Below the pieces are notes generated by a model. The model worked only from the letters and a program-made list of their open reading frames with translations. It was not told the origin of the DNA and did not search any database. From Buchnera aphidicola (Cinara cuneomaculata) (GTDB lineage: Bacteria > Pseudomonadota > Gammaproteobacteria > Enterobacterales > Enterobacteriaceae): a stretch of 64,000 nt of DNA. The first letter of the stretch is position 1. Each line of letters begins with the position of its first letter. The position numbers were made by a program, and so were the translations under genes. The stretch is taken from assembly GCF_900698865.1 (NCBI RefSeq), contig NZ_LR217695.1, forward strand, positions 1 through 64,000, in the 5' to 3' direction. This document shows, one piece after another, positions 66 through 58,328 of this stretch.

Positions 66-1958
66 ATGGTTTTTTATAAAAAATTTGATATCATTGTAAT
101 TGGTGGTGGACACGCTGGTACAGAAGCAGCGTCCGCTTCTTCAAGAATGGGTCAAAAAACTTTATTATTAACACAAAATATTAATACAATTGGAGAATTA
201 TCTTGTAACCCAGCTATTGGAGGAATAGGAAAAAGTCAATTAGTTAAAGAAATTGATGCTATGGATGGTTTAATGGCTCGTGTTACTGATTATGCTGGAA
301 TTCAATTTAGAAAATTAAATTCTAAAAAAGGATCTGCTGTACAGTCTACTCGCGCTCAAACCGATAGATCGTTATATAAAAAAAAGATGCAAGATTTTTT
401 AATAAATCAAGAAAACTTACTAATTTTAGAAAAGGAAGTATCAGATTTAATTATTAAAAATAATCAAGTATATGGAGTTCTTACTGATGATGGTGATTCT
501 TTTATTGGTACTGCAGTGATACTAACAACTGGTACTTTTTTAAATGGTCGCATGTATATTGGATCTAAAATATTATCTGGGGGCAGACGTGATGATGCTA
601 ATTCATCAATATTAGCTAAAAATTTAAAAAAATATCCTTTTAGATTTGGGCGACTGAAAACTGGTACACCTCCACGTTTACACGCTAAGACTATTAATTT
701 TAATGAACTAGAAACTCAATGGGGAGATAATCCTATTCCATGGTTTTCTTTCATTAAAAATAGTTCAAAAAACCCAAAACAAGTACCTTGTTATATTACT
801 TATACTAATGTTAATACTCATGAATTAATTAAAAATAATTTACATAATAGTCCATTATATAATGGAATTATTACAGGCATAGGACCTAGATATTGTCCTT
901 CTATTGAAGATAAAATAGTTCGTTTTTCAAATAAACATCGTCATCAAATTTTTTTAGAACCAGAAGGTATTAATAGTGAAGTTATTTATCCTAATGGAAT
1001 TTCTACTAGTTTATCTTCTAGGGTACAAAAAAAAATGGTACGTTCTATTAAAGGACTAGAAAGTGCAGAAATTATTTATCCAGGATATGCAGTAGAATAT
1101 GATTTTTTTGATCCAAGAGATCTGAAAATGACATTAGAATCTAAAATTATTAAAAATCTATTTTTAGCCGGACAAATTAACGGTACGACTGGTTACGAAG
1201 AAGCAGGTGCGCAAGGTTTATTAGCAGGTATAAATGCTGCTCTATTGGTTCAGAACAAAATTTCTTGGTACCCAAAACGTAATCAAGCGTATATTGGGGT
1301 ATTAATAGACGACTTGTGTAATAAAGGTACTTCTGAACCGTATCGAATGTTTACGGCTCGAGCAGAATATCGATTATTATTACGTGAAAATAATGCTGAT
1401 GATCGTTTAACTGAAATTGGTTACAAGCTTGGAGTAGTTAGTTATAAACGATGGAGTATTTTTTCTAAAAAAAAAAATATAATTTCACAAGAACGTCGAA
1501 GATTAAAAAATATTATTATTACACCTAAATTATTTAATTGTTTTTTTAAAAATAAAAATTTAAATATTAATTTAAAACAAGATTGTACTGCTTTTGAGTT
1601 TTTACGTCGACCAAATATTACTTATACAATTTTAAAAAAATTCATAAATAATTTTATTTCTAATCAGACATTTATAAAAAATAAAGTAATTATTGAAGAA
1701 ATTGAAACTCAAAGTAAATATTATGGTTATATTCAACGACAAAAAAGAGAAATAAAAAAAATTATACATTATGAATATATGAAGTTATCTTCTATTCAAG
1801 ATTATAAATATGTTACCGGTTTATCTAATGAAGCAATAGACAAATTAAATATGTATCGACCTCATTCTATTGGTCAAGCTTCTCGCATCTCAGGTATAAC
1901 TCCTGCAACGATATCTATTTTGCTTATTTTTTTAAAAAAATGTAATTTTAAAAATTAA
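66..1958 (+). CDS. mnmG: tRNA uridine 5-carboxymethylaminomethyl modification enzyme MnmG
   Basis: MnmG is the FAD-dependent partner of MnmE and installs the cmnm5 group on U34 of tRNAs reading split codon boxes. The 630-residue product has the usual family length. The N-terminal dinucleotide-binding loop reads [12 protein letters not shown] (about residues 11-22), followed by the family motif [11 protein letters not shown] near residue 50 and the conserved [10 protein letters not shown] and GYEEAGAQG segments. The start ATG has an AGGA ribosome site about 7 bases upstream. Its partner mnmE lies in the same window at 9286-10641, so the modification complex appears complete. In related Buchnera the atp operon follows on the same strand; here gyrB on the opposite strand follows after 116 bases. 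Confidence 0.97.
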
Positions 1959-1999
1959 GTATTTATTTTTATAAAATTCTTTTTAAAAATATTATTTTT

Positions 2000-2027
2000 G
2001 GCAGGTTTATTAAAATTATGTCCTGCC
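2000..2027. terminator. Hairpin between convergent mnmG and gyrB
   Basis: GGCAGG (2000-2005) and CCTGCC (2022-2027) form a perfect 6-bp GC-rich stem with a 16-base loop, flanked by T-rich sequence on the left and A-rich on the right. It can therefore act in both directions. It is the only GC-rich block in the 116-base gap and lies between two convergent genes, so a shared terminator is the natural reading. Confidence 0.6.
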
Positions 2028-2074
2028 GAAATTAATAAATTTATAAATTTAATTATATAAGATATAAATAATTT

Positions 2075-4489
<2,415 letters not shown>

Positions 4490-4561
4490 TTATCCTATTA
4501 TATTAGTAGTATTTTTTATACAAAAATATATATATTAAAAATTAACTTATTTAAAATAAAC

Positions 4562-5668
4562 TTATATTTTTAATGGCATAATTATAAATTTAATTTCTTT
4601 TTGTATATTTGATTGAATTTGAATACTTGAAATTGGTATATTAAAAACAATATTAATTGTATTATTTTTTAATACATTTAGAACATCAAGTAAATAAAAA
4701 ACATTTATAGAAAATGAAATATTTTCATATTTATAATCAATACGAAAAGAATCACGTGATTCTTCGTCATCTTGATTACTTGATGTAATTGTTAGTAAAT
4801 TTTTCGAAAAATTTAAATAAACACCTTTAAAGGTAGTGTTGCATAAAATTGATGTTTTTAATAATGATTCTTTTAATTGTTCTATTGATATTACTATACA
4901 GCGAGTATACGTATTTAGAATAATATCATGATAATTAGGAAAATGACCATTTATTAATTTAGTAATTAAAATTATATTATTAATTTGAAAAGATACATAA
5001 TGATTATGAATAATAATTTCTATTAAATCAGTTGTATAATTTAATAATCTATATAGTTCTAAAATAGCTTTTTTATTAATAATTATAGAAAATTCGTGTA
5101 TATGCAAATCTACATGAGTTTTATATAAAGACAATCTATGTCCATCCGTAGTTACTCCATATAAATAGTTTCCTTTGTATTCTAGTAACATGCCGTTTAA
5201 GGTATTTCGAATATCGTTATTGGCAATAGAAAAATGTGTTAATAAAATAATTTCTTTTAACATCAATTGAGACATAAAAAATTCTTTATTATTTTTAATA
5301 ATTTTAAATTGAGGAAATTTTTTATATGAAATAGTATTTAATTTAAATATACTATTTAGTATTTTAATAGTTATTTTTTGATTAAATAATTGAAAATGTA
5401 ATTCTACATTACTTTTTATATTACGACAAATATTAAATATTTTTTTTCCAGAAACTGTAATACAACCGGCTGTATAAAAAATATAATTTTTTTTATGTAT
5501 ATATGCATTTAATTCAAGTTCTAATGTAGAACTTGTTAATTTAAGCATATTTTTATTAATTTGTATCATTATATTTTCCAATACTGGAAAAATTGTATTT
5601 TTTGTGATAATTTTATTGATTTTTTTAAAAGAATTTAAAAAATCATTTTTTTTTATTTTGAATTCCAT
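4562..5668 (-). CDS. dnaN: DNA polymerase III beta sliding clamp
   Basis: The beta clamp encircles DNA and tethers polymerase III and other clamp-binding proteins. The 368 residues match the family (366 in E. coli). The N-terminal MEFKIKKNDFLNSFKKIN, the VTTDGHRLSLYKT segment and the C-terminal PLKI ending fit DnaN, although overall conservation is low. It lies 3 bases after dnaA on the minus strand, the usual dnaA-dnaN coupling, and dnaN-gyrB are adjacent because recF is absent. Confidence 0.95.
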   Translation of the reverse strand: MEFKIKKNDFLNSFKKINKIITKNTIFPVLENIMIQINKNMLKLTSSTLELELNAYIHKKNYIFYTAGCITVSGKKIFNICRNIKSNVELHFQLFNQKITIKILNSIFKLNTISYKKFPQFKIIKNNKEFFMSQLMLKEIILLTHFSIANNDIRNTLNGMLLEYKGNYLYGVTTDGHRLSLYKTHVDLHIHEFSIIINKKAILELYRLLNYTTDLIEIIIHNHYVSFQINNIILITKLINGHFPNYHDIILNTYTRCIVISIEQLKESLLKTSILCNTTFKGVYLNFSKNLLTITSSNQDDEESRDSFRIDYKYENISFSINVFYLLDVLNVLKNNTINIVFNIPISSIQIQSNIQKEIKFIIMPLKI

Positions 5669-5671
5669 ATT

Positions 5672-6759
5672 TTATGAATTTAGTTGATTAAATAAATATA
5701 AAAAATCGTAATAGAGTTTATTTTTTTTTTTTAATTGATTAATTTTTTTATATGCATACATGACAGTAGTACGGTGTTTTTTTCCAAAAGCTACACCTAT
5801 ATCAGAAAAGCTATAATTAGTTAATTTTTTTATTAAAGTCATAGCAATTTGTCTTGATCTTACAATAAATTTAGATCTTTTTTTTGAAATCATATCTGAT
5901 ATTTTAATCTTAAAATAAATAGAGACTTTTTTTTGAATTAACTTTATATCTATGTTTTTTTTTTTTTGTATTTTTCTTTTAAATTCCCGTTGAATAAGAT
6001 GTATTTTTATTTTTTTTTTTAAGAATAATGATGTTAAATATATTTTTTTTAAAAAATTTTTTAATTCTCGTATATTAGAATATAAATTTTTTGCAATATA
6101 TTGAGCAGATTTATATGGTAAATAAATTTTATGTTTATATGCTTTTTTTAAAAGAATATATGTTCTAGTAATTAATTCTGGAGATTTAATAGGTATAATT
6201 AATCCTTGCTTAAAATAAAATTGCAAATTTTTATTGATTCCATTAATATAATTTGGATAACGGTCTGAGCTTAATATAATTTTTTGATTTTTTTCAAATA
6301 ATTTTTTAAATATATAAAACAATTCTTTTTGTAAATATTTCTTATAAGAAAATAGTTGAATGTCATCTATAAGTAGTACATTAATAGAACTATAATAATT
6401 TTTAAAATGTTCAATAGAATTATTCTGTATTGAATGTATCATATTTTCAATAAAATTTTTTGAATGTATGTATATTACTTTAATATTATAATTATCTATT
6501 AAAAATTTATTTCCTATGGCATGAAGTAAATGCGTTTTTCCTAAACCTGTATCGCTATATAAAAATAATGAATTATAAATATTTTTTATATTTTCAGTAA
6601 ATTTGTAAGATAAAAAACGAGCCAATTGATTTGATTTACCTTCGATAAAATTATTAAATTGATATTTTGGATTAATGCCAGTATTTGATATTATTTTTAT
6701 TTGTAATTTTTTTTTTTTCTTTTTTTGTGTATATTTTTATTAAAATGTTTATTTAGCAT
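5672..6759 (-). CDS. dnaA: Replication initiator DnaA, degenerate, with poly(A) frameshift
   Basis: Residues from FNNFIEGKSNQLA to the end align with DnaA domains III and IV. Uninterrupted translation from the first usable codon (TTG at 6625) gives 317 residues, but homology continues upstream to about 6690. An ATG at 6759 reads into an A12 tract (window 6707-6718) and then stops; one extra A joins both frames into a 362-residue product. Domain I, the helicase-contact part, is missing. The Walker A loop reads SDTGLGKT instead of GGTGLGKT, the box VII arginine finger (LKSRFG) is LQFYFK, and the DNA-binding signature DHTTV is HRTTV; Walker B (LLIDDIQ) and sensor 2 (NIRELK) remain. The gene is either a dying relic or a strongly altered initiator. 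I place low confidence on the start. Confidence 0.85.
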
Positions 6760-7142
6760 ATATATTAAGATGAATCATAATTTATTTACATATAGTGCTT
6801 ATATAATGATTGTTTATAATTTATCATTTATTTTAAATTTATTTTTTATAAAATATTACATTATTGTGTTATACAAGATATAATATAAAAAATAATTCAA
6901 TATTTATATTGAATAAACTGTTTATATAAATAGTTAATTAGTTGGTTTTTAATAGTATTATTTGACATCAAATTATATTGATATTTTTTGAAAAAAAATA
7001 ATTGTCATTATTATATTTTTTTATTTTAAAAAATAGTCAAATTAAGGATTTTAATTTATAAATATTATGTTATAAATATTTTTTATAAAAATAAAATTTT
7101 ATTAATAAAATATTTATAAAAATATAATAAGGAAAAATTGTT
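6760..7142. other. Gene-free dnaA-rpmH divergent gap, possible relic of DnaA domain I
   Basis: This 383-base A+T-rich gap separates divergent dnaA and rpmH. On the minus strand a short frame starting MSNNTIKNQLINYL (about 6967 downwards) and a later stretch reading YFIKNKFKIND resemble, weakly, the start and end of DnaA domain I, split by stops. No consensus DnaA box (TTATCCACA) is visible by eye. The promoter of rpmH should lie in the right half, but no convincing -35/-10 pair stands out in such A+T-rich DNA. Confidence 0.35.
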
Positions 7143-7277
7143 ATGAAACGTACTTTTCAACCATCTATTCTTAAACGTAATCGAACTCATGGTTTTCGTG
7201 CTCGCATGTCTTCTAAAAGTGGTAGAGCCATACTATCTCATCGACGTTTAAAGTCTCGTTCAGTTTTATGTGTATAG
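7143..7277 (+). CDS. rpmH: 50S ribosomal protein L34
   Basis: A 44-residue basic protein starting MKRTFQPS and containing [11 protein letters not shown] and RAILSHRR, the L34 hallmark. L34 is a small subunit of the large ribosomal subunit. An AAGGA ribosome site precedes the ATG. It is 9 bases before rnpA, the conserved rpmH-rnpA pair. Confidence 0.97.
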
Positions 7278-7286
7278 GGATACTAC

Positions 7287-7664
7287 ATGAAATTATGCAA
7301 TACGCCTCGTTTTTTTTTTAAAAAAAAATTACGTTTATTGTCGAACGATCAATTTAAGTATGTTTATGAACGTAATTTTAGAATTCATGTAAAATCATTT
7401 ATTATATTAAGATGTATAAATAATTTAAATTATCCAAGATTAGGTATGTCTATTGCTAAAAAAAATATTATACGATCACATGATCGTAATAGAATTAAAC
7501 GTTTGATTCGAGAAAGTTTTCGTTTAATTCAACATAATTTATTATTAATGGATTTTATTATTATTGTAAAAAAAAATACACATTTATTGAAAAATAATAG
7601 TATTTTGTTTTTTTTACAAAATATATGGCGTTTTAATAGTAAAAAAAATTTTAAATATAAATAA
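7287..7664 (+). CDS. rnpA: Ribonuclease P protein component
   Basis: RnpA is the protein cofactor of RNase P, which matures tRNA 5' ends together with the rnpB RNA encoded at 61107-61483. The 125 residues carry the signature RNRIKRLIRESFR (about residues 69-81) and the early LRLLSNDQFKYVYE segment. The spacing of 9 bases from rpmH suggests one transcript. The tail is Asn/Phe/Lys-rich and diverged. Confidence 0.95.
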   Translation: MKLCNTPRFFFKKKLRLLSNDQFKYVYERNFRIHVKSFIILRCINNLNYPRLGMSIAKKNIIRSHDRNRIKRLIRESFRLIQHNLLLMDFIIIVKKNTHLLKNNSILFFLQNIWRFNSKKNFKYK

Positions 7665-49602: not shown

Positions 49603-51285
49603 ATGGATGTTATAAATAATGTATTGTTAAAAATCAAAAAAAAATGGCATACATTTTTAATGTATGTATCGCATCGATTAAAATTTATCATTTTTATTTT
49701 TTCTATTATCTTTTTTTTTATATCTGCTATTTTTTTTTGGTTTAATAAAATTAATTACGTTGTATTATATGATAATTTATCTGACACAGATGGTCAATGG
49801 ATTACATCACAATTAAAAGATATGAATATATCATATCGATTTCGTAATTCTTATAAAACTTTATTAGTTCCGTCAGATAAAGTTCATGAATTACATTTTT
49901 CTTTAATAAATAACCAAGATATTAAAAAAAAAACTGATGGTTTTAAATTATTAGATAAAGAAAAATTTGGTATTAGTCAATTTCATGAAAATATTAATTA
50001 TCATAGGGGTTTAGAAGGTGAATTATCAAAAACATTAGAACATATTTTTCCTATTAAATATGCTCGAGTACATTTAGTTTGTAAAAAAGATAGTGATTTT
50101 TTTAGAGATAAACAAATTCCATCTGCATCGGTAATTATCACTTTATTTCCTAATACACAATTAAATTCAGAACAAATAGATGCTATTACTTTATTGCTTG
50201 CAGGTAGTGTTCCAGATTTATCAGCTGATCGAATTGTTGTTGTGAATCAATTTGGAAATGTATTGAATAAGTTTACTTTGAATCAAAGTAAGTTTTTTAA
50301 ATTTAATAAATATAAAAAAATTAATACTTTAGAAGAATACTATTCTAGTTGTATTAATAAAATTTTATTTCCTATATACGGATCTAAGAATATTATTGCA
50401 CACGTTACTGCTGATGTAAATTTTAATCATATCAATTCGAGACAGTCTAATTTAGATTATATTCAAAAAAATTCTTCTTTAAAAAAATTACCAGACAATA
50501 TTTCAGATTTGATTTCATGTAAAAATCAACATAATTCTTTAAATAATTCAGTATCACAATTAATTTTAGAATTGTTAAGTATGAAGTTTTTATATAAATT
50601 TTATATAAAAAATTTTTTAATGAATAATTCTTTTTATAATGATAATGTATTAAATAAAAAATTTGTTTATTCAAATAATTTTATTATTCCAAGTAACAGT
50701 AATACTACTAATAAAATTAAAAAAAAAATAATTGATTTTAACTCAGTTAGTGCAAATAATATCGTTTCTTTTCCAGGTTTTAAAAAATCGGATATTCGAC
50801 ATTTAACAATTACTGTATTAATAAATTATAAACAAAATGATATAGGTATTTTTACGCCATTATCTACGAATGAATTACAAGATATAGAAAAATTAGTTAA
50901 GTCAGTAATAGATTTTTCAGATAGTCGTGGTGATTGTATTAATATAATTAATTGTATGTTTTCTACTTCTCAAATTCCTTTAAATCAAAATAATGCATTG
51001 ATAAATATGAATTTTAATTTCAACTATTTATTAGTTATTTTATTAGGAATATTAATTATTATTTTTATTATTTTTTTATTTGTTCAAGAGATTACGGTTA
51101 GTAAGAATCAAAAAAAATATTTAAAACCATTAAGTAACAATAATTTAAATTTAGAAAACAGATCTGATCAAAAATTAAATCAATTGAATTTAAATATAAA
51201 TCGTACAGTTACTAAAGATGATATTTTTAATAAAAATCCAAAAATTATCGAACAGATCATACGTTATTGGATGAATAAGAAATGA
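49603..51285 (+). CDS. fliF: Flagellar MS-ring protein FliF
   Basis: FliF forms the inner-membrane ring on which the export apparatus is built. The 560 residues match the family (552). A transmembrane helix at about residues 27-47 is followed by the ring-building domains (YVVLYDNLSDTDGQWITSQL, FAREKFGISQFHENINYHRGLEGEL-type motif, ARVHLVCKKDSDF) and a second helix near 468-488. The C-terminal FliG-binding tail NPKIIEQIIRYWMNKK is kept. The middle region, about 290-380, is eroded. Overlaps fliG by 4 bases. Confidence 0.94.
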   Translation: MDVINNVLLKIKKKWHTFLMYVSHRLKFIIFIFSIIFFFISAIFFWFNKINYVVLYDNLSDTDGQWITSQLKDMNISYRFRNSYKTLLVPSDKVHELHFSLINNQDIKKKTDGFKLLDKEKFGISQFHENINYHRGLEGELSKTLEHIFPIKYARVHLVCKKDSDFFRDKQIPSASVIITLFPNTQLNSEQIDAITLLLAGSVPDLSADRIVVVNQFGNVLNKFTLNQSKFFKFNKYKKINTLEEYYSSCINKILFPIYGSKNIIAHVTADVNFNHINSRQSNLDYIQKNSSLKKLPDNISDLISCKNQHNSLNNSVSQLILELLSMKFLYKFYIKNFLMNNSFYNDNVLNKKFVYSNNFIIPSNSNTTNKIKKKIIDFNSVSANNIVSFPGFKKSDIRHLTITVLINYKQNDIGIFTPLSTNELQDIEKLVKSVIDFSDSRGDCINIINCMFSTSQIPLNQNNALINMNFNFNYLLVILLGILIIIFIIFLFVQEITVSKNQKKYLKPLSNNNLNLENRSDQKLNQLNLNINRTVTKDDIFNKNPKIIEQIIRYWMNKK

Positions 51286-52262
51286 TACATTTAAATGGTA
51301 TGCAGAAAAGTGCTTTATTATTAATATATCTAGATATACAGCAATCAGCTTCTGTTTTAAAATTTTTTAATAATTCAGAAATTAGTGAATTAGTGGATGT
51401 AATGATTTCATTGGATAGTGAGATAATGAAATATACTAATATGGTGATTTGTGAGTTTTGTAACTTACTAAAAAAAAATAAAGTTTCTAATGTTGATATC
51501 AAAACACGTATATCTCAAATTATAGAAAACACGATTGATACAGAAAAATCACATAAATTATTAAAAAAAAGTTTCATAAAAAATGATTTTTTACATAACA
51601 TTATTATGTTAGAAAAATTAGGTGCAAAAAATATTTTTTTTTTAATTCAAAATGAAAATTTAAATATTATTTCAGCATTGTTGATTTATGTAAATCAAAC
51701 TTTATCCATGAAAATATTAGAATTATTCAACAAAAAAAAAAGGTTAAATATTTTAAAAAAAATGGTAACTTTTAAAAATTTACGTTGTTCAGGGTTTATT
51801 GAATTAAATAAAATTATTAGTTATTTTTTATATATACAACAAGCTTCTTTTTTAGAAGAGAAAAGAATTAATCAAATTGTCAATATGTTATCTTATTTCA
51901 AATATGATAATATTATTCAATTTATTAGTCAAATTAAAACTCCATATATAAATATTTTAAATAAAGTGATTAGCAAGTATTTTACATTTGAAGATATCAT
52001 AATTGTTGATGATATAAGTATAAAATGTATCATTAATAACATAGATTTAGATAGTTTATGTATTGTGTTACGTGATGTACATAATTCTTTAAAAAATAAA
52101 TTTATTTCTAATATGTCCAACGAACAACGTAAATATTTTAAAGAAACTATTTTTTTAAATAAATCAATTACTGATGATATCATTTTTTTAAAAAAAAACT
52201 TATTACTTCAAAAAATCAAGAAATTGATACGAATGAATAAGATTATTATTAAACAAAATTAG
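51282..52262 (+). CDS. fliG: Flagellar C-ring protein FliG, diverged
   Basis: FliG is the C-ring protein touching FliF and, in motile cells, the stator. The 326 residues equal the family length (331), with GMQKSALLLIYLD at the start and FISNMSNEQRKYF near the end. The EHPQ motif of the middle domain aligns with NENLN and the acidic residues of the torque helix (LRDDLANRG in E. coli) align with FKETIFLNK. No stator genes are in the window. The protein probably serves only as a ring scaffold. Confidence 0.88.
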   Translation: MIHLNGMQKSALLLIYLDIQQSASVLKFFNNSEISELVDVMISLDSEIMKYTNMVICEFCNLLKKNKVSNVDIKTRISQIIENTIDTEKSHKLLKKSFIKNDFLHNIIMLEKLGAKNIFFLIQNENLNIISALLIYVNQTLSMKILELFNKKKRLNILKKMVTFKNLRCSGFIELNKIISYFLYIQQASFLEEKRINQIVNMLSYFKYDNIIQFISQIKTPYINILNKVISKYFTFEDIIIVDDISIKCIINNIDLDSLCIVLRDVHNSLKNKFISNMSNEQRKYFKETIFLNKSITDDIIFLKKNLLLQKIKKLIRMNKIIIKQN

Positions 52263-52271
52263 GTATATAAT

Positions 52272-52952
52272 ATGAATCATATTTTAAATAATAATTTATG
52301 GAAGAAATGGAAACCCAAAAAATCATATAAAACTATTAATGTAGTACAAAAATCAGATATTTTTTCACATAAAGCATCGTTGTTTTCTGATGTTTTAAAT
52401 AAAAAAAATACATCTACGTATTCAAAAATTTATAAAAAAGGATATCAGCAAGGTTTAATCGCTGGATATAAAAAAGGATATTTTATTGGATGGATTCAGG
52501 GCTTTAATTGTGCTCGTGATTTTTTATCACAAAATATAACAAGATGTATACAAATACAATATGCGGATTTATTAAAAAAATTTAAAATTGCTATAAATAA
52601 TTTTAACGATAGTTTTTCAGAACGATTAATAAAAATTGTATTACATATTTCAAAAATTTTAGTAGAAGATATTATTGTAGTTAATAAAAATTACTTAATT
52701 AACAGAATTCAAAAATTAACGGAACAATCAAAATTTATATTTAATAGACTTCAATTACATGTACATCCTAATAATTATAATTTAATAATAAAAAAATTTG
52801 GAGTTTTAATGGAAAAATATAGTTGGACTGTTATTAGTAATGAAAAAATAGACGTAAACGGTTATCGTGTTATTACTTCTGATGAAGAAATAGATTCTTC
52901 TATCTCTTCTTTTTGGCATCGAATTAATAATGCAGTAAATTTATCGGATTAA
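52272..52952 (+). CDS. fliH: Flagellar export ATPase regulator FliH
   Basis: FliH dimers hold the FliI ATPase at the C-ring and resemble the peripheral stalk of F-type ATPases. The 226 residues (228 in E. coli) include WKKWKPKK at the N-terminus, the glycine-spaced YKKGYQQGLIAGYKKGYFIGW stretch in two parts, and a C-terminal LQLHVHPNNYNLIIKK. It is 9 bases after fliG and 6 before fliI. Confidence 0.9.
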   Translation: MNHILNNNLWKKWKPKKSYKTINVVQKSDIFSHKASLFSDVLNKKNTSTYSKIYKKGYQQGLIAGYKKGYFIGWIQGFNCARDFLSQNITRCIQIQYADLLKKFKIAINNFNDSFSERLIKIVLHISKILVEDIIVVNKNYLINRIQKLTEQSKFIFNRLQLHVHPNNYNLIIKKFGVLMEKYSWTVISNEKIDVNGYRVITSDEEIDSSISSFWHRINNAVNLSD

Positions 52953-52958
52953 GAGTAT

Positions 52959-54335
52959 ATGAATTATCTACTAAATACTTGGTTTAATAAAGTTGATAAA
53001 TTTGAAAAAAAAATATCGTTTTTTTCCCACAATATTTCATATGGTAGAGTATTAAGTGTAAATAATTTAATTATTGAGGTAACTGGAATATATTTACCTA
53101 TTGGAAATTTTTGTTGGGTAGAACGAATTCATAAAGATATATTATCTGGTATAATATGTAAAATTATAGGGTTTAAAGGAAAAATTACTTTTTTAGCGCC
53201 TATGCAGCATTTAGATGGTGTTTTTCCTGGATCGAAAGTTTTTTCTCAATATAGCATGAATAATACTATTATTGATTTTAATAGCTTTCCATTTGGATAT
53301 CAATTATTAGGGCGGGTATTAGATAGTTATGGCTATCCTTTAGATAATTTAGAAGAAATTAAATCACAAAAAAAACCACTTAATTTCTTTAAAGCATCAA
53401 TTAATCCCTTACAGAGATCTCCAATTACAGAAATTTTAGATACGGGTGTACGAGCTATTAATAGTTTATTAACTGTTGGTAGAGGGCAAAGAATGGGTAT
53501 ATTTTCACAGCCTGGAATTGGAAAAAGTATGTTACTTGGAATGATATCTCGACATACTAATGCTGATATAATTGTTGTATCTTTAGTGGGTGAAAGAGGA
53601 AGAGAAGTAAAAGAATTTGTTGATAATATTTTAGGTGTTCATAGTTTAAAAAAATCAGTGGTTATTGTTTCTCCAGCTGATGTTTCTCCTATTTTAAAAA
53701 TTCAATCTGTTCAATATGCAACTTCTATTGCAGAATATTTTTGTAAAAAAAATAATCATGTTTTATTGATAGTGGACTCATTAACGCGATATGCTATGGC
53801 ATATCGAGAAATATCTAATGCTATGTACGAAGTTCCGGTATTAAAAGGTTATCCTGCTTCTATTTTTTCAAATATTCCGTATTTAATTGAACGTATAGGT
53901 AATATTAATCCGAATGGTTTAGGATCTATTACTGCTTTTTATACTGTATTGACGGAGGGAGATGAATATAATGATCCTATTTTAGATATTGCAAAATCTG
54001 TTTTAGACGGACATATTGTTTTATCAAATTTTTTATCAGAAGCTGGTCATTATCCAGCTATTGATATTGAAAAATCTATTAGTCGATCGATGCATTCTAT
54101 TATAAATCGTGATCATTATAAAAATTCTATATTTTTAAAAAAATTAATATCATGTTATTATCGTCATAATGACTTGATTAATTTAGGGGTATATTCTTCC
54201 GGTTCAAATAAATTATTGGATAATGCAATAAAAATTTGGTCGAATTTAGAAAAATTTTTACAACAAAAATTTTTAGAACGTTGTTCATATACGCAATCTG
54301 TATTAGAATTAATAGCATTATTAAAAAATATTTAG
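52959..54335 (+). CDS. fliI: Flagellum-specific export ATPase FliI
   Basis: FliI is the hexameric ATPase energising flagellar type III export. The 458 residues (457 in E. coli) carry Walker A SQPGIGKSMLLGM (about residues 181-193), SLVGERGREVKEF, Walker B LLIVDSLTRYAMAYREI, and the ATPase alpha/beta signature PAIDIEKSISRSM. Of the cluster it is the best conserved protein with FliP. Confidence 0.96.
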   Translation: MNYLLNTWFNKVDKFEKKISFFSHNISYGRVLSVNNLIIEVTGIYLPIGNFCWVERIHKDILSGIICKIIGFKGKITFLAPMQHLDGVFPGSKVFSQYSMNNTIIDFNSFPFGYQLLGRVLDSYGYPLDNLEEIKSQKKPLNFFKASINPLQRSPITEILDTGVRAINSLLTVGRGQRMGIFSQPGIGKSMLLGMISRHTNADIIVVSLVGERGREVKEFVDNILGVHSLKKSVVIVSPADVSPILKIQSVQYATSIAEYFCKKNNHVLLIVDSLTRYAMAYREISNAMYEVPVLKGYPASIFSNIPYLIERIGNINPNGLGSITAFYTVLTEGDEYNDPILDIAKSVLDGHIVLSNFLSEAGHYPAIDIEKSISRSMHSIINRDHYKNSIFLKKLISCYYRHNDLINLGVYSSGSNKLLDNAIKIWSNLEKFLQQKFLERCSYTQSVLELIALLKNI

Positions 54336-54355
54336 TATATAAATCGGAGATATAT

Positions 54356-54804
54356 ATGATTTTAAACATGTCTAGTATTAATGTATTTAAAAAAAAATAG
54401 AAATAGATATTCATAAGAATATTTTTAATATAACGCGTTATAAAAATAAAAAAACAGAAATACAAAAATATTTATTACAATTAAAAGAATATAAAAATAA
54501 ATATATTTTTTTATTATCAAAAAAATTTTTTTCTGGTGTTACACAACATAGAATTCAATTCTATTTTAATTTTATATTGATGTTACAAAAACTGATTGAT
54601 CAACAAAATATTTGGTTAAATTATTTTAAACAAAAATTAAAAAAAAGATTATTAATTCAATATAAATTGAATTCTACTTTAGAACAATGGAAAAAATTAG
54701 AATTACGTCTTAAAAATCGTATTATAAAAGAAAAAATATTGATAGACCAACGTAATGATAATGCTGTATGTTTGAATTTTTATAGTATTTTGACCTTAAA
54801 ATAA
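54356..54804 (+). CDS. fliJ: Flagellar protein FliJ, frame broken at A9
   Basis: FliJ is the coiled-coil stalk linking FliI to the export gate. From ATG 54356 (after CGGAGA) the frame reads MILNMSSINVFKKK into an A9 tract (54389-54397) and stops at once at TAG. One extra A restores a 149-residue protein that continues IEIDIHKNIFN and ends YSILTLK; its SGVTQHRIQFYFNF matches the SAGITSNRW segment of FliJ, and total length matches E. coli (147). A shorter frame from the ATG at 54577 would keep only the second half. Either a slippage-dependent gene or a very recent pseudogene. Confidence 0.8.
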
Positions 54805-54852
54805 ACAAAATAATTAATAATTTGGTTATTTATAGTATAATTATGATATTAT

Positions 54853-54878
54853 ATATATACGTAATATTACGTATATAT
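54853..54878. repeat. 26-bp palindrome between fliJ and fliM
   Basis: ATATATAC and GTATATAT flank the self-complementary GTAATATTAC, making an exact palindrome from 54853 to 54878 in the 98-base fliJ-fliM gap. fliK, which lies here in other Buchnera, is absent. It may be a terminator or processing site inside the fli operon. Confidence 0.5.
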
Positions 54879-54902
54879 TTATCTTATAAATAAGTTATAA
54901 CT

Positions 54903-55535
54903 ATGTCTCGGAAATTTAATTTTTTATATAAATCAAATAATAATCAAGAATTAAATCATATAAATTTTATGAATTTTTTTTTGAATAAAAAAAAAATATT
55001 TTTTAGAAATTTATTCTCTGATTTTATTTTATTATTTGAAAAAAAATTTAGTAAATTTTTTTATTGTAATGTGAATATACAGTTTATACGCAGTTATATT
55101 AAATATCATCATATATATATGAAGAGTTTATATATAAAATATATCGGTAAACAATTCATGTTAAGAGATTGTACTGATAAATGTTTAATTTTAATTACAC
55201 AAGATTTATTTATTATTTTTATTAATTATTTATTTGGTCATGTTAATGAAAATACAGATGAATATTGTAATTATAAAAATTTAACATTACATGAAATAAA
55301 AATTTTAGATCTTCTATTACAAAAAATTTTTATTATTTGTGATTTAACATTTTTAAGTAATATTTCAACGTCAAGTATTAATAATTGTAAGTATTATTCA
55401 TTAAATGATTTTTTATTTACGCGATTTATTAAATTTCCTTATATATGTTTTGAATTTAATATTTATATTAAAAATCGTATTAATGTATTAAAAATATATA
55501 TTCCGAATTGTATTGTAGAAAAGTTTTACAAATAG
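54903..55535 (+). CDS. fliM: Flagellar C-ring protein FliM, truncated to the middle domain
   Basis: The 210 residues align with the central CheC-like domain of FliM: FRNLFSDFILLFEKKF, ITQDLFIIFINYLFGH (FSPSLVFIAVDNLFGG in E. coli), LTLHEIKILDLLLQKI, and the ending INVLKIYIPNCIVEKF at the border of the next domain. The N-terminal CheY-binding peptide and the whole C-terminal SpoA domain that binds FliN are missing (334 residues in E. coli). The 207 bases downstream show no remnant. Function is probably limited to a scaffold between FliG and the rest of the ring. Confidence 0.78.
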   Translation: MSRKFNFLYKSNNNQELNHINFMNFFLNKKKIFFRNLFSDFILLFEKKFSKFFYCNVNIQFIRSYIKYHHIYMKSLYIKYIGKQFMLRDCTDKCLILITQDLFIIFINYLFGHVNENTDEYCNYKNLTLHEIKILDLLLQKIFIICDLTFLSNISTSSINNCKYYSLNDFLFTRFIKFPYICFEFNIYIKNRINVLKIYIPNCIVEKFYK

Positions 55536-55742
55536 AAATATTATTTTAATATAAGTAATTTTTACTAATTATATAAATATATATTTGATATAAAAGACAA
55601 GATTATATAATTTAATTATATTAAATATAAAAGTTTATTTATTTTATTAAAATATTGTATTTTTAAAATAAACATAATAATTTAAAATTATGATATAATG
55701 TGAAAATTACATAAATATATTTTATAAGGTGATAAAAATTTC

Positions 55743-56051
55743 GTGAGTACAAAAGAATTATTAAATCAAGAAATACAAAGTAAAGATCTCAATAAAAAAA
55801 TAATAGACCAATCTATGATGACAGATTTATCTATTATGTCGATTCCTGTTCTTATTACTATTGAATTAGGAAAAAAAAAAATTACTATTCGTGAATTATT
55901 ACAACTATCATGCGGATCTATATTAGAATTAGAAGAAGCAGTAGATGAACCGTTAAATATTTTTGTTAATAATTTTTTAATTGCATTAGGAGAATTAGTC
56001 ATGCATAAGGAAAAATATGGTATTCGTATAACAAAATTGTTACATAAGTAA
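55743..56051 (+). CDS. fliN: Flagellar C-ring protein FliN
   Basis: FliN forms the base of the C-ring, where it docks FliH for export. It starts at GTG 55743 after AAGGTGAT and has 102 residues (137 in E. coli); the SpoA domain is intact: SIPVLITIELGKKKITIRELL, GSILELEEAVDEPLNIFVNN, ALGELVMHKEKYGIRI. The N-terminal extension is shortened. Confidence 0.94.
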   Translation: MSTKELLNQEIQSKDLNKKIIDQSMMTDLSIMSIPVLITIELGKKKITIRELLQLSCGSILELEEAVDEPLNIFVNNFLIALGELVMHKEKYGIRITKLLHK

Positions 56052-56084
56052 TGATGATATAGACTATTCATCATGTAAAAATTT

Positions 56085-56483
56085 ATGAAATTAAACAGTT
56101 ATATTCAATTAAGTTTAATATATATTATGCCTAATAATAACATGATTCATTATTTTGTTAACCAAAATAATCTAAATATATTTATGTATAGTTTTTTATT
56201 TATTTTTTTTATTTTATTTTTAATAAAAAGATGTAATTTATTTTATTGGAATAAAAATAATGTTAGTTATATAACGGATAAAGTTTATTTAAATCCCGAT
56301 CATTATATTTGTATATTGCATATTGAAAAAACTAGGTTATTACTTGCTGTTACATTAACTAAAATTAATGTGATACACGAATTACCATCTAATTTGAAAA
56401 CGGTTATAAAAAATAAAAATAAATGTTCATTTTACTCTAAACCATTAAAATTATTAAAATCAATAATATTTTGGTTTAAGTGA
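56085..56483 (+). CDS. fliO: Flagellar biosynthesis protein FliO
   Basis: FliO is a small bitopic membrane protein that assists assembly of the FliP ring. The 132 residues have one transmembrane segment (about 34-52, MYSFLFIFFILFLIKR) followed by a cytoplasmic domain in which HIEKTRLLLAVTLTKINVIHEL corresponds to the family's ARLVLGVTAGQINLLHKL. Identity is low; position between fliN and fliP supports the call. The true start could be an internal ATG (codon 15 or 20). Confidence 0.8.
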   Translation: MKLNSYIQLSLIYIMPNNNMIHYFVNQNNLNIFMYSFLFIFFILFLIKRCNLFYWNKNNVSYITDKVYLNPDHYICILHIEKTRLLLAVTLTKINVIHELPSNLKTVIKNKNKCSFYSKPLKLLKSIIFWFK

Positions 56484-56489
56484 GGTAAC

Positions 56490-57224
56490 ATGTTATTTGA
56501 CAATATAATTTTTTATTTATCTATTGTGCCAGTTTTTTTATTAACAAATACTACTAATAGTAATGTAAATAATATCGTGAGTTACGGAACTAATATATTT
56601 AATTATTCTCTTCAATCATCAATGATGTTAACTGTATTGAGTTTAGTACCTGCGTGTTTATTGATGATGACTTGTTTCACTCGTATTATTATTGTGTTTA
56701 GTTTTTTAAGAACAGCATTAGGAACACCTTATTCTCCTCCTAATCAAATATTGATTGGGTTATCATTATTTTTAACAGTGTTTATTATGTCTCCGGTATT
56801 GGATAAAATCTATAATACTGCGATAGTTCCGTTATATAATAATGAAATTCATATAGATACAGCTTTAAAGAATATTATTAAACCATTACATAAATTTATG
56901 TTAAAGCAAACTAGAAAATCTGATATTTCCGTATTTTTACGGTTAGCTAAGATATCTACGAAAAGTAATTATAAGAATATTCCTATTCAAGTATTATTAC
57001 CAGCATTTATGATTAGCGAATTAAAAACGTCTTTTCAGATTGGTTTTACAATTTTTTTACCTTTTTTAATTATTGATTTAGTTGTTGCTAGTATTTTAAT
57101 GTCTTTAGGAATAATGATGGTACCGCCGTCTACAATTGCTTTACCGTTAAAATTAATCTTATTTGTTTTATCAGATGGATGGAGGTTATTAATTTTATCT
57201 CTTTCAAAGAGTTTTTTTATTTAA
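56490..57224 (+). CDS. fliP: Flagellar export gate protein FliP
   Basis: FliP pentamers build most of the export gate. The 244 residues (245 in E. coli) begin with a signal-like hydrophobic segment, then [41 protein letters not shown], and [25 protein letters not shown], all strongly conserved. A GAGGTAAC ribosome site precedes the ATG. Confidence 0.97.
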
Positions 57225-57264
57225 ATTAATTGTTTTAAAATTATTAATTATAATGGATATTATT

Positions 57265-57540
57265 ATGAATCAAGAATTTTTAATGATATTATTTCAAGAT
57301 TCTATTCAATTTGCATTATTGCTATCTGCTCCTTGTTTATTGTCAATATTATTTAGTGGTTTATTAATGAGTATATTTCAAGCATCAACACAAATAACTG
57401 AGCAAACATTATCATTTATACCTAAAATAATATCGGTAGTGTTATCTTGTATTGTTTTTGGACCTTGGATGCTACAAATTACTTTAGAATATATAAACAA
57501 TATTTTTCATATAATATCAATTATTAGTTCATCATCATGA
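57265..57540 (+). CDS. fliQ: Flagellar export gate protein FliQ
   Basis: FliQ is a two-helix hairpin of the export gate. I start at ATG 57265 (MNQEFLMILFQDS), which has GGA 8 bases upstream and yields 91 residues (89 in E. coli); the ATG at 57253 lacks a ribosome site. Conserved: LMSIFQASTQITEQTLSFIPKI in two overlapping parts and GPWMLQI. It overlaps fliR by 4 bases. Confidence 0.95.
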   Translation: MNQEFLMILFQDSIQFALLLSAPCLLSILFSGLLMSIFQASTQITEQTLSFIPKIISVVLSCIVFGPWMLQITLEYINNIFHIISIISSSS

Positions 57541-58328
57541 TAAATCATTTGTTTTATAAACATATATTTGGTATGGATAGTAAAATTCTACTAATAATGT
57601 CACGTATTTATTCAATTTTAATGTATTCCAAAATATTTAGCTATATTAGTGATAATGCATCTATAAAATTTTTCTTTATATATGTAACAAGTCATTTATT
57701 AGCGCCTTTTGTTTCTGATTACAATATTAATCATTATGACATAGAATTTTTGATGATTTTATGTAATCAAATTTTAATAGGAATGGCAATAGGATTATTG
57801 TTTCAATGTTTATTTTCTTGTATAATTTTTATAGGGGAAATTATTAGTTCACAGATTGGTTTATCATTTTCAGTTTTTTTTGATTTAGGTTTTCATGTAT
57901 ATTCTTTAGTTCTTTCAAATTTATTAAATATTTTTTTTTTATTTTCATTTTTCGTATATAATGGTCATTTAAAATTAATTATTTTTTTAATTAAGAGTTT
58001 TCAGGTATTTCCATTATATAATACATCGATAGATCGAAACATTATTTGGTCTATTATTCATTTTTCTAGTCTTATTTTTTTAAATGGAGTATATTGTGTT
58101 TTACCAATTTTGTTTTTTTTTTTGATTTTATTTATAGCATGTATGGTATTAAATCGTATAGTACCTAGTACATCTTTATTTTCTTCTTTTTCAGTTATTA
58201 TTTTTATTGTAGGGATGATTTTATTAAAATATTTTATTTTTAAGTTTTACGGAATTAGTAAAATTTTATTTGATTATTTATTTCATTACTTGAAAATATA
58301 TGGATTTAAATTATTGTGGCATAAATAA
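57537..58328 (+). CDS. fliR: Flagellar export gate protein FliR
   Basis: FliR completes the FliP5-Q4-R1 gate. The 263 residues (261 in E. coli) have about six hydrophobic segments with the family blocks QILIGMAIGLLFQCLF, GEIISSQIGLSFSVFFDLG and LNGVYCVLPILFFFL. Translationally coupled to fliQ. Last gene of the fli operon in this window; flhA and flhB are not here. Confidence 0.94.
   Translation: MINHLFYKHIFGMDSKILLIMSRIYSILMYSKIFSYISDNASIKFFFIYVTSHLLAPFVSDYNINHYDIEFLMILCNQILIGMAIGLLFQCLFSCIIFIGEIISSQIGLSFSVFFDLGFHVYSLVLSNLLNIFFLFSFFVYNGHLKLIIFLIKSFQVFPLYNTSIDRNIIWSIIHFSSLIFLNGVYCVLPILFFFLILFIACMVLNRIVPSTSLFSSFSVIIFIVGMILLKYFIFKFYGISKILFDYLFHYLKIYGFKLLWHK

What the first reader, a model, noticed from the sequence alone, without database searches (positions are those of the whole stretch)
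1959..2074. ATP synthase operon absent from the mnmG-gyrB junction
Seen: mnmG and gyrB are separated by 116 bases holding one hairpin. Known: in the well-studied Buchnera gene order, atpBEFHAGDC (eight genes, about 7 kb) fills this place. Inference: the operon was deleted or moved, leaving perhaps its old terminator (2000-2027). If deleted, this cell would depend on substrate-level phosphorylation or host ATP and could not make ATP from proton motive force.
Basis: partly seen in the sequence, partly recalled or inferred. Interest (0 to 1): 0.75.

Follow-up and report, generated by a model that had tools for sequence, protein, structure and literature searches.

The report
Aphid symbiont lacking ATP synthase genes
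This bacterium from a conifer-aphid lineage has lost the genes for the rotary enzyme that makes ATP, a loss already published for its group, yet it still keeps genes for proton-pumping respiration, which must then serve some other purpose.

Summary
mnmG and gyrB face each other across 116 bases with one strong hairpin. In 21 of 22 small-genome relatives that I read, atp genes follow mnmG; in 18 of these gyrB comes next. No a, c or alpha/beta subunit of ATP synthase was found in this genome or in 15 genus-mates; the two alpha/beta-type hits here are flagellar FliI and, by inference, Rho. The deletion is real, shared by the genus sample, and not an assembly fault. The hairpin matches one beside gyrB in 13 of 18 atp-bearing relatives and is not found after mnmG (0 of 18), so it is a relic of the old operon end, here without a U-tract.

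The loss is already in print (Buchnera of Cinara cedri, 2011; all Lachninae Buchnera, 2024). What adds interest: NuoD and CyoB are intact in 16 of 16 genomes, nuo/cyo genes are under purifying selection, and many recalled proton-pump residues are unchanged, against the 2011 view that BCc no longer respires. Best reading: ATP by substrate-level phosphorylation or host supply; respiration re-oxidises NADH and keeps a membrane potential for protein export and insertion. The consumer of that potential is not shown.

The parts
66..1958 (+). mnmG (gidA), intact; left neighbour of the lost operon
   Evidence: TIGR00136 863.9 bits; present in 16 of 16 genus genomes
1959..2074 (.). 116-base scar where atpBEFHAGDC lies in atp-bearing relatives
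1990..2037 (.). extended hairpin; core stem 2000-2005 with 2022-2027, loop 16 nt; relic of the atpC/gyrB convergent hairpin
   Evidence: z = -5.0; core unique in window; same hairpin at the gyrB 3' flank in 15 of 16 genus genomes and 13 of 18 atp-bearing relatives
2075..4486 (-). gyrB, intact; right neighbour of the lost operon
   Evidence: PRK14939 1153.6 bits
52959..54335 (+). fliI, flagellar export ATPase; one of two F1-alpha/beta-type hits in the genome, not an ATP synthase subunit
   Evidence: FliI_clade1 515.1 bits against atpD 134.1 and atpA 125.7 bits; PF00006 search
49603..58328 (+). flagellar export cluster fliF-fliG-fliH-fliI-(fliM? below cut-off)-fliN-fliO-fliP-fliQ-fliR; candidate user of proton motive force
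   Evidence: window proteins find the cluster in 14 of 15 other genus genomes, with varying completeness, and not in the stretch read of G010

Best explanation
This is a Buchnera of the Lachninae/Cinara group in which the whole atpBEFHAGDC operon was deleted between the end of mnmG and the hairpin that used to follow atpC. Shown: a, c and alpha/beta subunits are absent here and in the 15 genus-mates held; a hairpin matching the one at the old operon end was kept; complex I and bo3 oxidase genes are kept, are under purifying selection, and many recalled pump residues are unchanged. Inferred: the loss happened once, in a common ancestor; the cell makes ATP by substrate-level phosphorylation (acetate kinase is present in 16 of 16) and/or takes ATP from the host cell; respiration re-oxidises NADH and holds a membrane potential that is spent on protein export and membrane insertion (Sec/YidC, and in most species the flagellar export gate), not on ATP.
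For: PF00119 in 0 of 16 genus genomes (9 of 14 controls ring); PF00137 in 0 of 16 (14 of 14 controls ring). PF00006 gives two places in 15 of 16 and one in G010; in this genome one is FliI and the other, a frame of 431 aa, is taken to be Rho. atp genes between mnmG and gyrB in atp-bearing relatives. Hairpin: 15 of 16 genus, 13 of 18 relatives, 0 of 18 after mnmG, 2 of 3400 shuffled segments. nuoA-M and cyoA, B, C, E by family, nuoN by alignment to E. coli; NuoD 16 of 16, CyoB 16 of 16, acetate kinase 16 of 16. Listed pump-type residues of NuoL/M/N invariant at 14 of 24 sites against 10 of 158 other ionisable sites, p = 7e-9; CyoB D135, E286, K362, N124, N142 identical in 16 of 16. dN/dS 0.06-0.35 for nuoL, M, N, H and cyoB in the six closest pairs.
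Against: The user of the potential is not identified: G010 has no FliI anywhere, so the flagellar export gate cannot be the general answer. nuoL, M and N evolve somewhat faster relative to dS (0.15-0.35) than mnmG and gyrB (0.08-0.19), and no comparison with atp-bearing branches was made. 10 of the 24 listed NuoL/M/N sites vary; NuoM E407 is K in three genomes. G009 (Buchnera BCc) has one in-frame stop in nuoM. No CyoD could be recognised in this genome. Conserved residues in complex I may be needed for redox turnover as well as pumping. b, delta, gamma and epsilon were searched only in the window. Charles et al. 2011 (PMC3246468, passages) hold that BCc lost the respiratory chain and possibly proton impermeability.
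Confidence: 0.6

Rival explanations
1. The operon is not lost but lies elsewhere in the genome or on an unassembled piece, or the junction is an assembly collapse.
For: Genome completeness is 98.33%, not 100%; four subunits were not searched genome-wide.
Against: 16 of 16 genus genomes lack atpB and atpE and have mnmG followed by gyrB; papers report the same absence for BCc and for all Lachninae Buchnera (passages).
Confidence: 0.02
2. Respiration is kept only as an NADH sink that lets glycolysis and acetate formation run; the proton gradient itself has no use and leaks away through a permeable membrane.
For: Acetate kinase in 16 of 16. Charles et al. 2011 (PMC3246468, passages) suggest lost proton impermeability in BCc. 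The model iBCc98 (PMC5702781, passages) finds NADH regeneration limited by the lack of ATP synthase. nuoL, M and N have a higher dN/dS than mnmG and gyrB.
Against: A non-pumping NADH dehydrogenase would need far less DNA than the nuo cluster of about 15 kb (coordinates, nuoN added; argument is inference); CyoB D135, which by recall can be replaced to give an active, non-pumping oxidase, is unchanged in 16 of 16; many NuoL/M/N pump sites are retained while the rest has drifted to 30-38% mean identity with E. coli.
Confidence: 0.3
3. The host cell feeds the symbiont with ATP through an unrecognised carrier, and respiration serves only membrane potential.
For: A published model gives a very low ATP yield for BCc (PMC5702781, passages).
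Against: A TLC-type nucleotide carrier matched in 0 of 16 genomes, but no control genome rang, so this is not proof of absence. No carrier candidate was found, and no other carrier family was searched.
Confidence: 0.15

Closest known systems
Buchnera aphidicola BCc (Cinara cedri) without F-ATP synthase (Charles et al. 2011, PMC3246468, passages)
   Same: Same genus group; F-ATP synthase absent; reduced flagellar export system kept. G009 is this strain by its plasmid: 2500 of 2500 bases identical to NC_011878.1.
   Different: The paper concludes that the respiratory chain, and possibly proton impermeability, are lost; here NuoD and CyoB are intact in 16 of 16, BCc included, with many pump residues unchanged; BCc has one stop in nuoM.
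Lachninae-wide loss of atp genes (BMC Biol 2024, PMC11188193, passages)
   Different: The passages I saw do not describe the junction or the retained hairpin; 'nuo' and 'NADH' do not occur in its main text.
E. coli atp deletion mutants (recalled, not read)
   Same: Grow by substrate-level phosphorylation with respiration running without ATP synthase.
   Different: Laboratory deletion in a free-living cell with full transport; here an old natural loss.

Membership tests
ATP-synthase-less Lachninae Buchnera | No F1Fo ATP synthase genes | tested here: met
   a, c and alpha/beta genome-wide; all eight subunits in the window only
ATP-synthase-less Lachninae Buchnera | Belongs to Buchnera of Lachninae aphids | tested here: met
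   leu plasmid stretch nearest to Buchnera of Cinara pseudotaxifoliae, 82.5%, then C. cedri 78.2%; genus-mate G009 is BCc
ATP-synthase-less Lachninae Buchnera | Loss shared by the genus | tested here: met
   0 of 16 genomes with PF00119, 0 of 16 with PF00137
Relic of the atpC/gyrB hairpin | Same hairpin at the 3' flank of gyrB in atp-bearing relatives | tested here: met
   13 of 18; 0 of 18 after mnmG; 2 of 3400 shuffled
Intrinsic transcription terminator | GC-rich stem followed by a U-tract | tested here: not met
   0 terminator-like sites in 1500-4600; by eye T-runs follow the stem in some relatives, not here
Proton-pumping respiratory chain | Complex I and haem-copper oxidase with pump residues | tested here: met
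   10 of 24 listed NuoL/M/N sites vary; CyoD not recognised
Proton-pumping respiratory chain | Generates a membrane potential in the cell | not testable with these tools
   needs measurement on isolated symbionts
ATP/ADP-carrier energy parasite | TLC-type nucleotide carrier | tested here: inconclusive
   no match in 16 genomes, but no control rang

The most novel reading that the evidence does not exclude
Lachninae Buchnera are a natural, long-lived case of proton pumping without ATP synthase: the proton motive force is kept by selection for protein export and insertion or another membrane task alone, which would separate the two roles of respiration in a living lineage.
Probability: 0.45. Interest if true: 0.6.

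Novelty: already known. Interest (0 to 1): 0.35.

Why it matters
The loss itself is published. If pumping is truly under selection, this group makes an open question testable: what a cell needs a membrane potential for when it cannot turn it into ATP. It would also correct a printed statement that BCc no longer respires, and would change how the energy budgets of these symbionts are modelled.

Tried and rejected
A loose hairpin scan (6 of 7 pairs, 4 of 7 matches per arm) was rejected as undiscriminating: 81 of 1020 shuffled and 222 of 1020 real mnmG segments passed; the strict scan replaced it. In one search, 73 of 3400 random real segments of the same loci passed; these can overlap the true site, and I did not separate them. 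The related-loci scan with DnaN gave 34 pattern matches and no relative. A weak atpH hit in G008 (E = 0.003) lies between gyrB and dnaA, where dnaN is expected, and was taken as chance. That fliI is a moved atpD was rejected by family scores. The ORF extractor gave 73 aa for NuoM of G009; one search's alignment looked continuous, and one search showed one in-frame stop, so that row was dropped from the NuoM counts (15 rows instead of 16). In one search I used a pump-site list narrowed after seeing (21 of 23 invariant over NuoL, M, N, K and CyoB); because that choice was made after the fact, repeats the test on the full NuoL/M/N list (14 of 24). The residue numbers are recalled, not from a call. 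E. coli letters were read from MG1655; some recalled numbers did not fit the residue I had in mind (for example CyoB 438 and 439, which are Y and W).

Choice of relatives: they are unnamed same-family genomes. Seven were taken because atpB lies near the start of contig 1 (then), so they had atp by choice; fifteen because mnmG lies near the start of contig 1 (then). Together these are 22 of the 37 genomes. So 21 of 22 with atp genes after mnmG is not a frequency. G077 had none in the 14 kb read; L043, L059 and L060 had no gyrB in the stretch; L058 and L059 gave no atpH hit.

Full report
Observation. mnmG (66-1958, +) and gyrB (2075-4486, -) are convergent and separated by 116 bases. The clear feature in the gap is a hairpin: 1990-2040 folds at -17.2 kcal/mol against a shuffled mean of -5.2 (z = -5.0). 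Its core (2000-2028) occurs once in the window and in 0 of 100 shuffled windows.

What is missing. G000 has 442,546 bases in three contigs and 98.33% completeness; the window is the start of contig 1, 430,940 bases. PF00119 (a subunit) has no match in G000 and matches in 0 of 16 genus genomes (9 of 14 controls ring), while 177 of 198 sampled family members have one. PF00137 (c subunit) matches in 0 of 16 while 14 of 14 controls ring. PF00006 (alpha/beta) gives two places per genome in 15 of 16 and one in G010. In G000 one is FliI by family score; the other, a frame of 431 aa near 417 kb, has the size and lower score expected of Rho, a family check I did not run. In the window, proteins of all eight subunits from a relative hit only FliI. 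The b, delta, gamma and epsilon subunits were not searched beyond the window in G000 and the first 12 kb of its genus-mates.

What used to be there. I read the mnmG region of 22 small-genome family members, seven of them picked because atpB lies near the contig start. In 21, atp genes follow mnmG; in 18 of these, gyrB comes next on the minus strand, with 6.8-7.6 kb between mnmG and gyrB in the six measured. The eight proteins of one of them (L041) were confirmed as subunits a, c, b, delta, alpha, gamma, beta and epsilon. In the 16 genus genomes the gap is 75-253 bases in 15; in G008 it is 917, by eye mostly a tandem array.

The hairpin. A strict scan finds the hairpin within 260 bases of the gyrB stop in 15 of 16 genus genomes (missing: G008) and 13 of 18 atp-bearing relatives, in the 260 bases after mnmG in 0 of 18 relatives, and in 2 of 3400 shuffled segments; 73 of 3400 random real segments passed, which can include the true site. 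A separate search for perfect stems gave 12 of 16, 12 of 18 and 0 of 21 mnmG-atpB spacers. Paired changes such as C-G to T-A (L042) and G-C to A-T (L044) keep the stem, but some rows have a broken pair. So the deletion took everything from just after mnmG up to this hairpin. In G000 the stem is preceded by T and followed by A, so it has no U-tract, and the terminator scan finds nothing; by eye, T-runs follow the stem in some relatives. I therefore call it a relic of the operon end; terminator activity is not shown.

Who it is. The second contig's stretch matches leuC and leuB of the plasmid of Buchnera from Cinara pseudotaxifoliae best (82.5%), then C. cedri (78.2%). Genus-mate G009 is Buchnera BCc by its plasmid, 100% identical over 2500 bases to NC_011878.1.

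What is kept. In G000, nuoA (Pfam), nuoB to nuoM (C and D fused) and an aligned nuoN are present; cyoA, B, C and E are present, while the 118-aa frame in the cyoD place matched nothing and E. coli CyoD found nothing convincing. NuoD, CyoB and acetate kinase matches are free of stops in 16 of 16. At E. coli positions recalled as important for pumping, NuoL E144, K229 and K399, NuoM E144, K234 and K265, NuoN E133, K217 and K395, NuoK E36 and E72, and CyoB D135, E286 and K362 are identical in every row examined (16; 15 for NuoM). Not all listed sites hold: NuoM E407 is K in three genomes, NuoN K247 is R in one, NuoH E216 and E218 are L in one, and several further listed positions vary. On the full NuoL/M/N list 14 of 24 are invariant against 10 of 158 other ionisable positions (p = 7e-9); a list narrowed afterwards, with NuoK and CyoB, gives 21 of 23. 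Such sites are conserved in complex I generally, so this shows retention, not a special pressure. dN/dS in the six closest pairs is 0.15-0.35 for nuoL, M and N, 0.06-0.09 for nuoH and 0.08-0.15 for cyoB, against 0.08-0.19 for mnmG and gyrB. The genes are thus under clear purifying selection, somewhat weaker in nuoL, M and N than in mnmG and gyrB.

How it probably works. Without F1Fo, proton flow cannot make ATP. ATP must come from substrate-level steps, of which only acetate kinase was checked, or from the host. A TLC carrier was not found, but the control was silent. Respiration can re-oxidise NADH and hold a membrane potential. Candidate users are Sec and YidC (listed for BCc in PMC3246468) and the flagellar export gate: fliF to fliR lie at 49603-58328 here and the cluster is found, with varying completeness, in 14 of the 15 other genomes. 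G010 shows none of it in the stretch read and no FliI genome-wide, so the flagellar gate is not the general answer.

Literature. Charles et al. 2011 (PMC3246468; passages) state that F-ATP synthase is absent from BCc, argue from rnf that BCc cannot regenerate ATP by respiration, name the respiratory chain as lost, and suggest a possible loss of proton impermeability. The 2024 study (PMC11188193; passages) lists atp losses for all Lachninae Buchnera. The 2017 model (PMC5702781; passages) gives a low ATP yield and leaves the use of protons open. Eight literature searches (the lists of 51, 68 and 73 are capped) showed no title or abstract start that treats pump-residue conservation in this group. 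That is no proof that it is unpublished: subscription papers, including the 2006 BCc genome and the 2011 C. tujafilina paper, are not held; I recall them and have not read them here.

Verdict. The finding is correct and already known; the retained hairpin and the retained pump genes are the additions.

Noticed in passing
window 5672-6625 (-): dnaA here covers only the ATPase and DNA-binding domains (317 aa). In genus-mates it ranges from open frames of 438-477 aa to two pieces (G001, G004) and only scraps in the stretch read of G015: a replication initiator gene that seems to be decaying.
   Followed up: partly
L030 (G008 contig 1) about 1876-2792: The mnmG-gyrB gap of G008 is 917 bases, by eye mostly a tandem array of a 16-base unit, in place of the hairpin.
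   Followed up: no
L073 (G009, Buchnera BCc) about 5882-7300: nuoM carries one in-frame stop in an otherwise continuous alignment; pseudogene or sequencing error.
   Followed up: partly
L108 (G010 contig 1, 45000-64500): gltX and the whole flagellar export cluster are missing from the stretch where the 14 other genus-mates read have them; no FliI genome-wide. Whether gltX and the rest lie elsewhere was not searched.
   Followed up: partly
L063 2962-3318 (-): The frame in the cyoD position matches no family and E. coli CyoD finds nothing convincing; bo3 oxidase may lack or have a very diverged subunit IV.
   Followed up: partly
family sample, e.g. G022, G047, G063, G097, G103, G137: Several other small genomes of the family, outside this genus, also have no PF00119 match, so atp loss may have happened more than once.
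   Followed up: no
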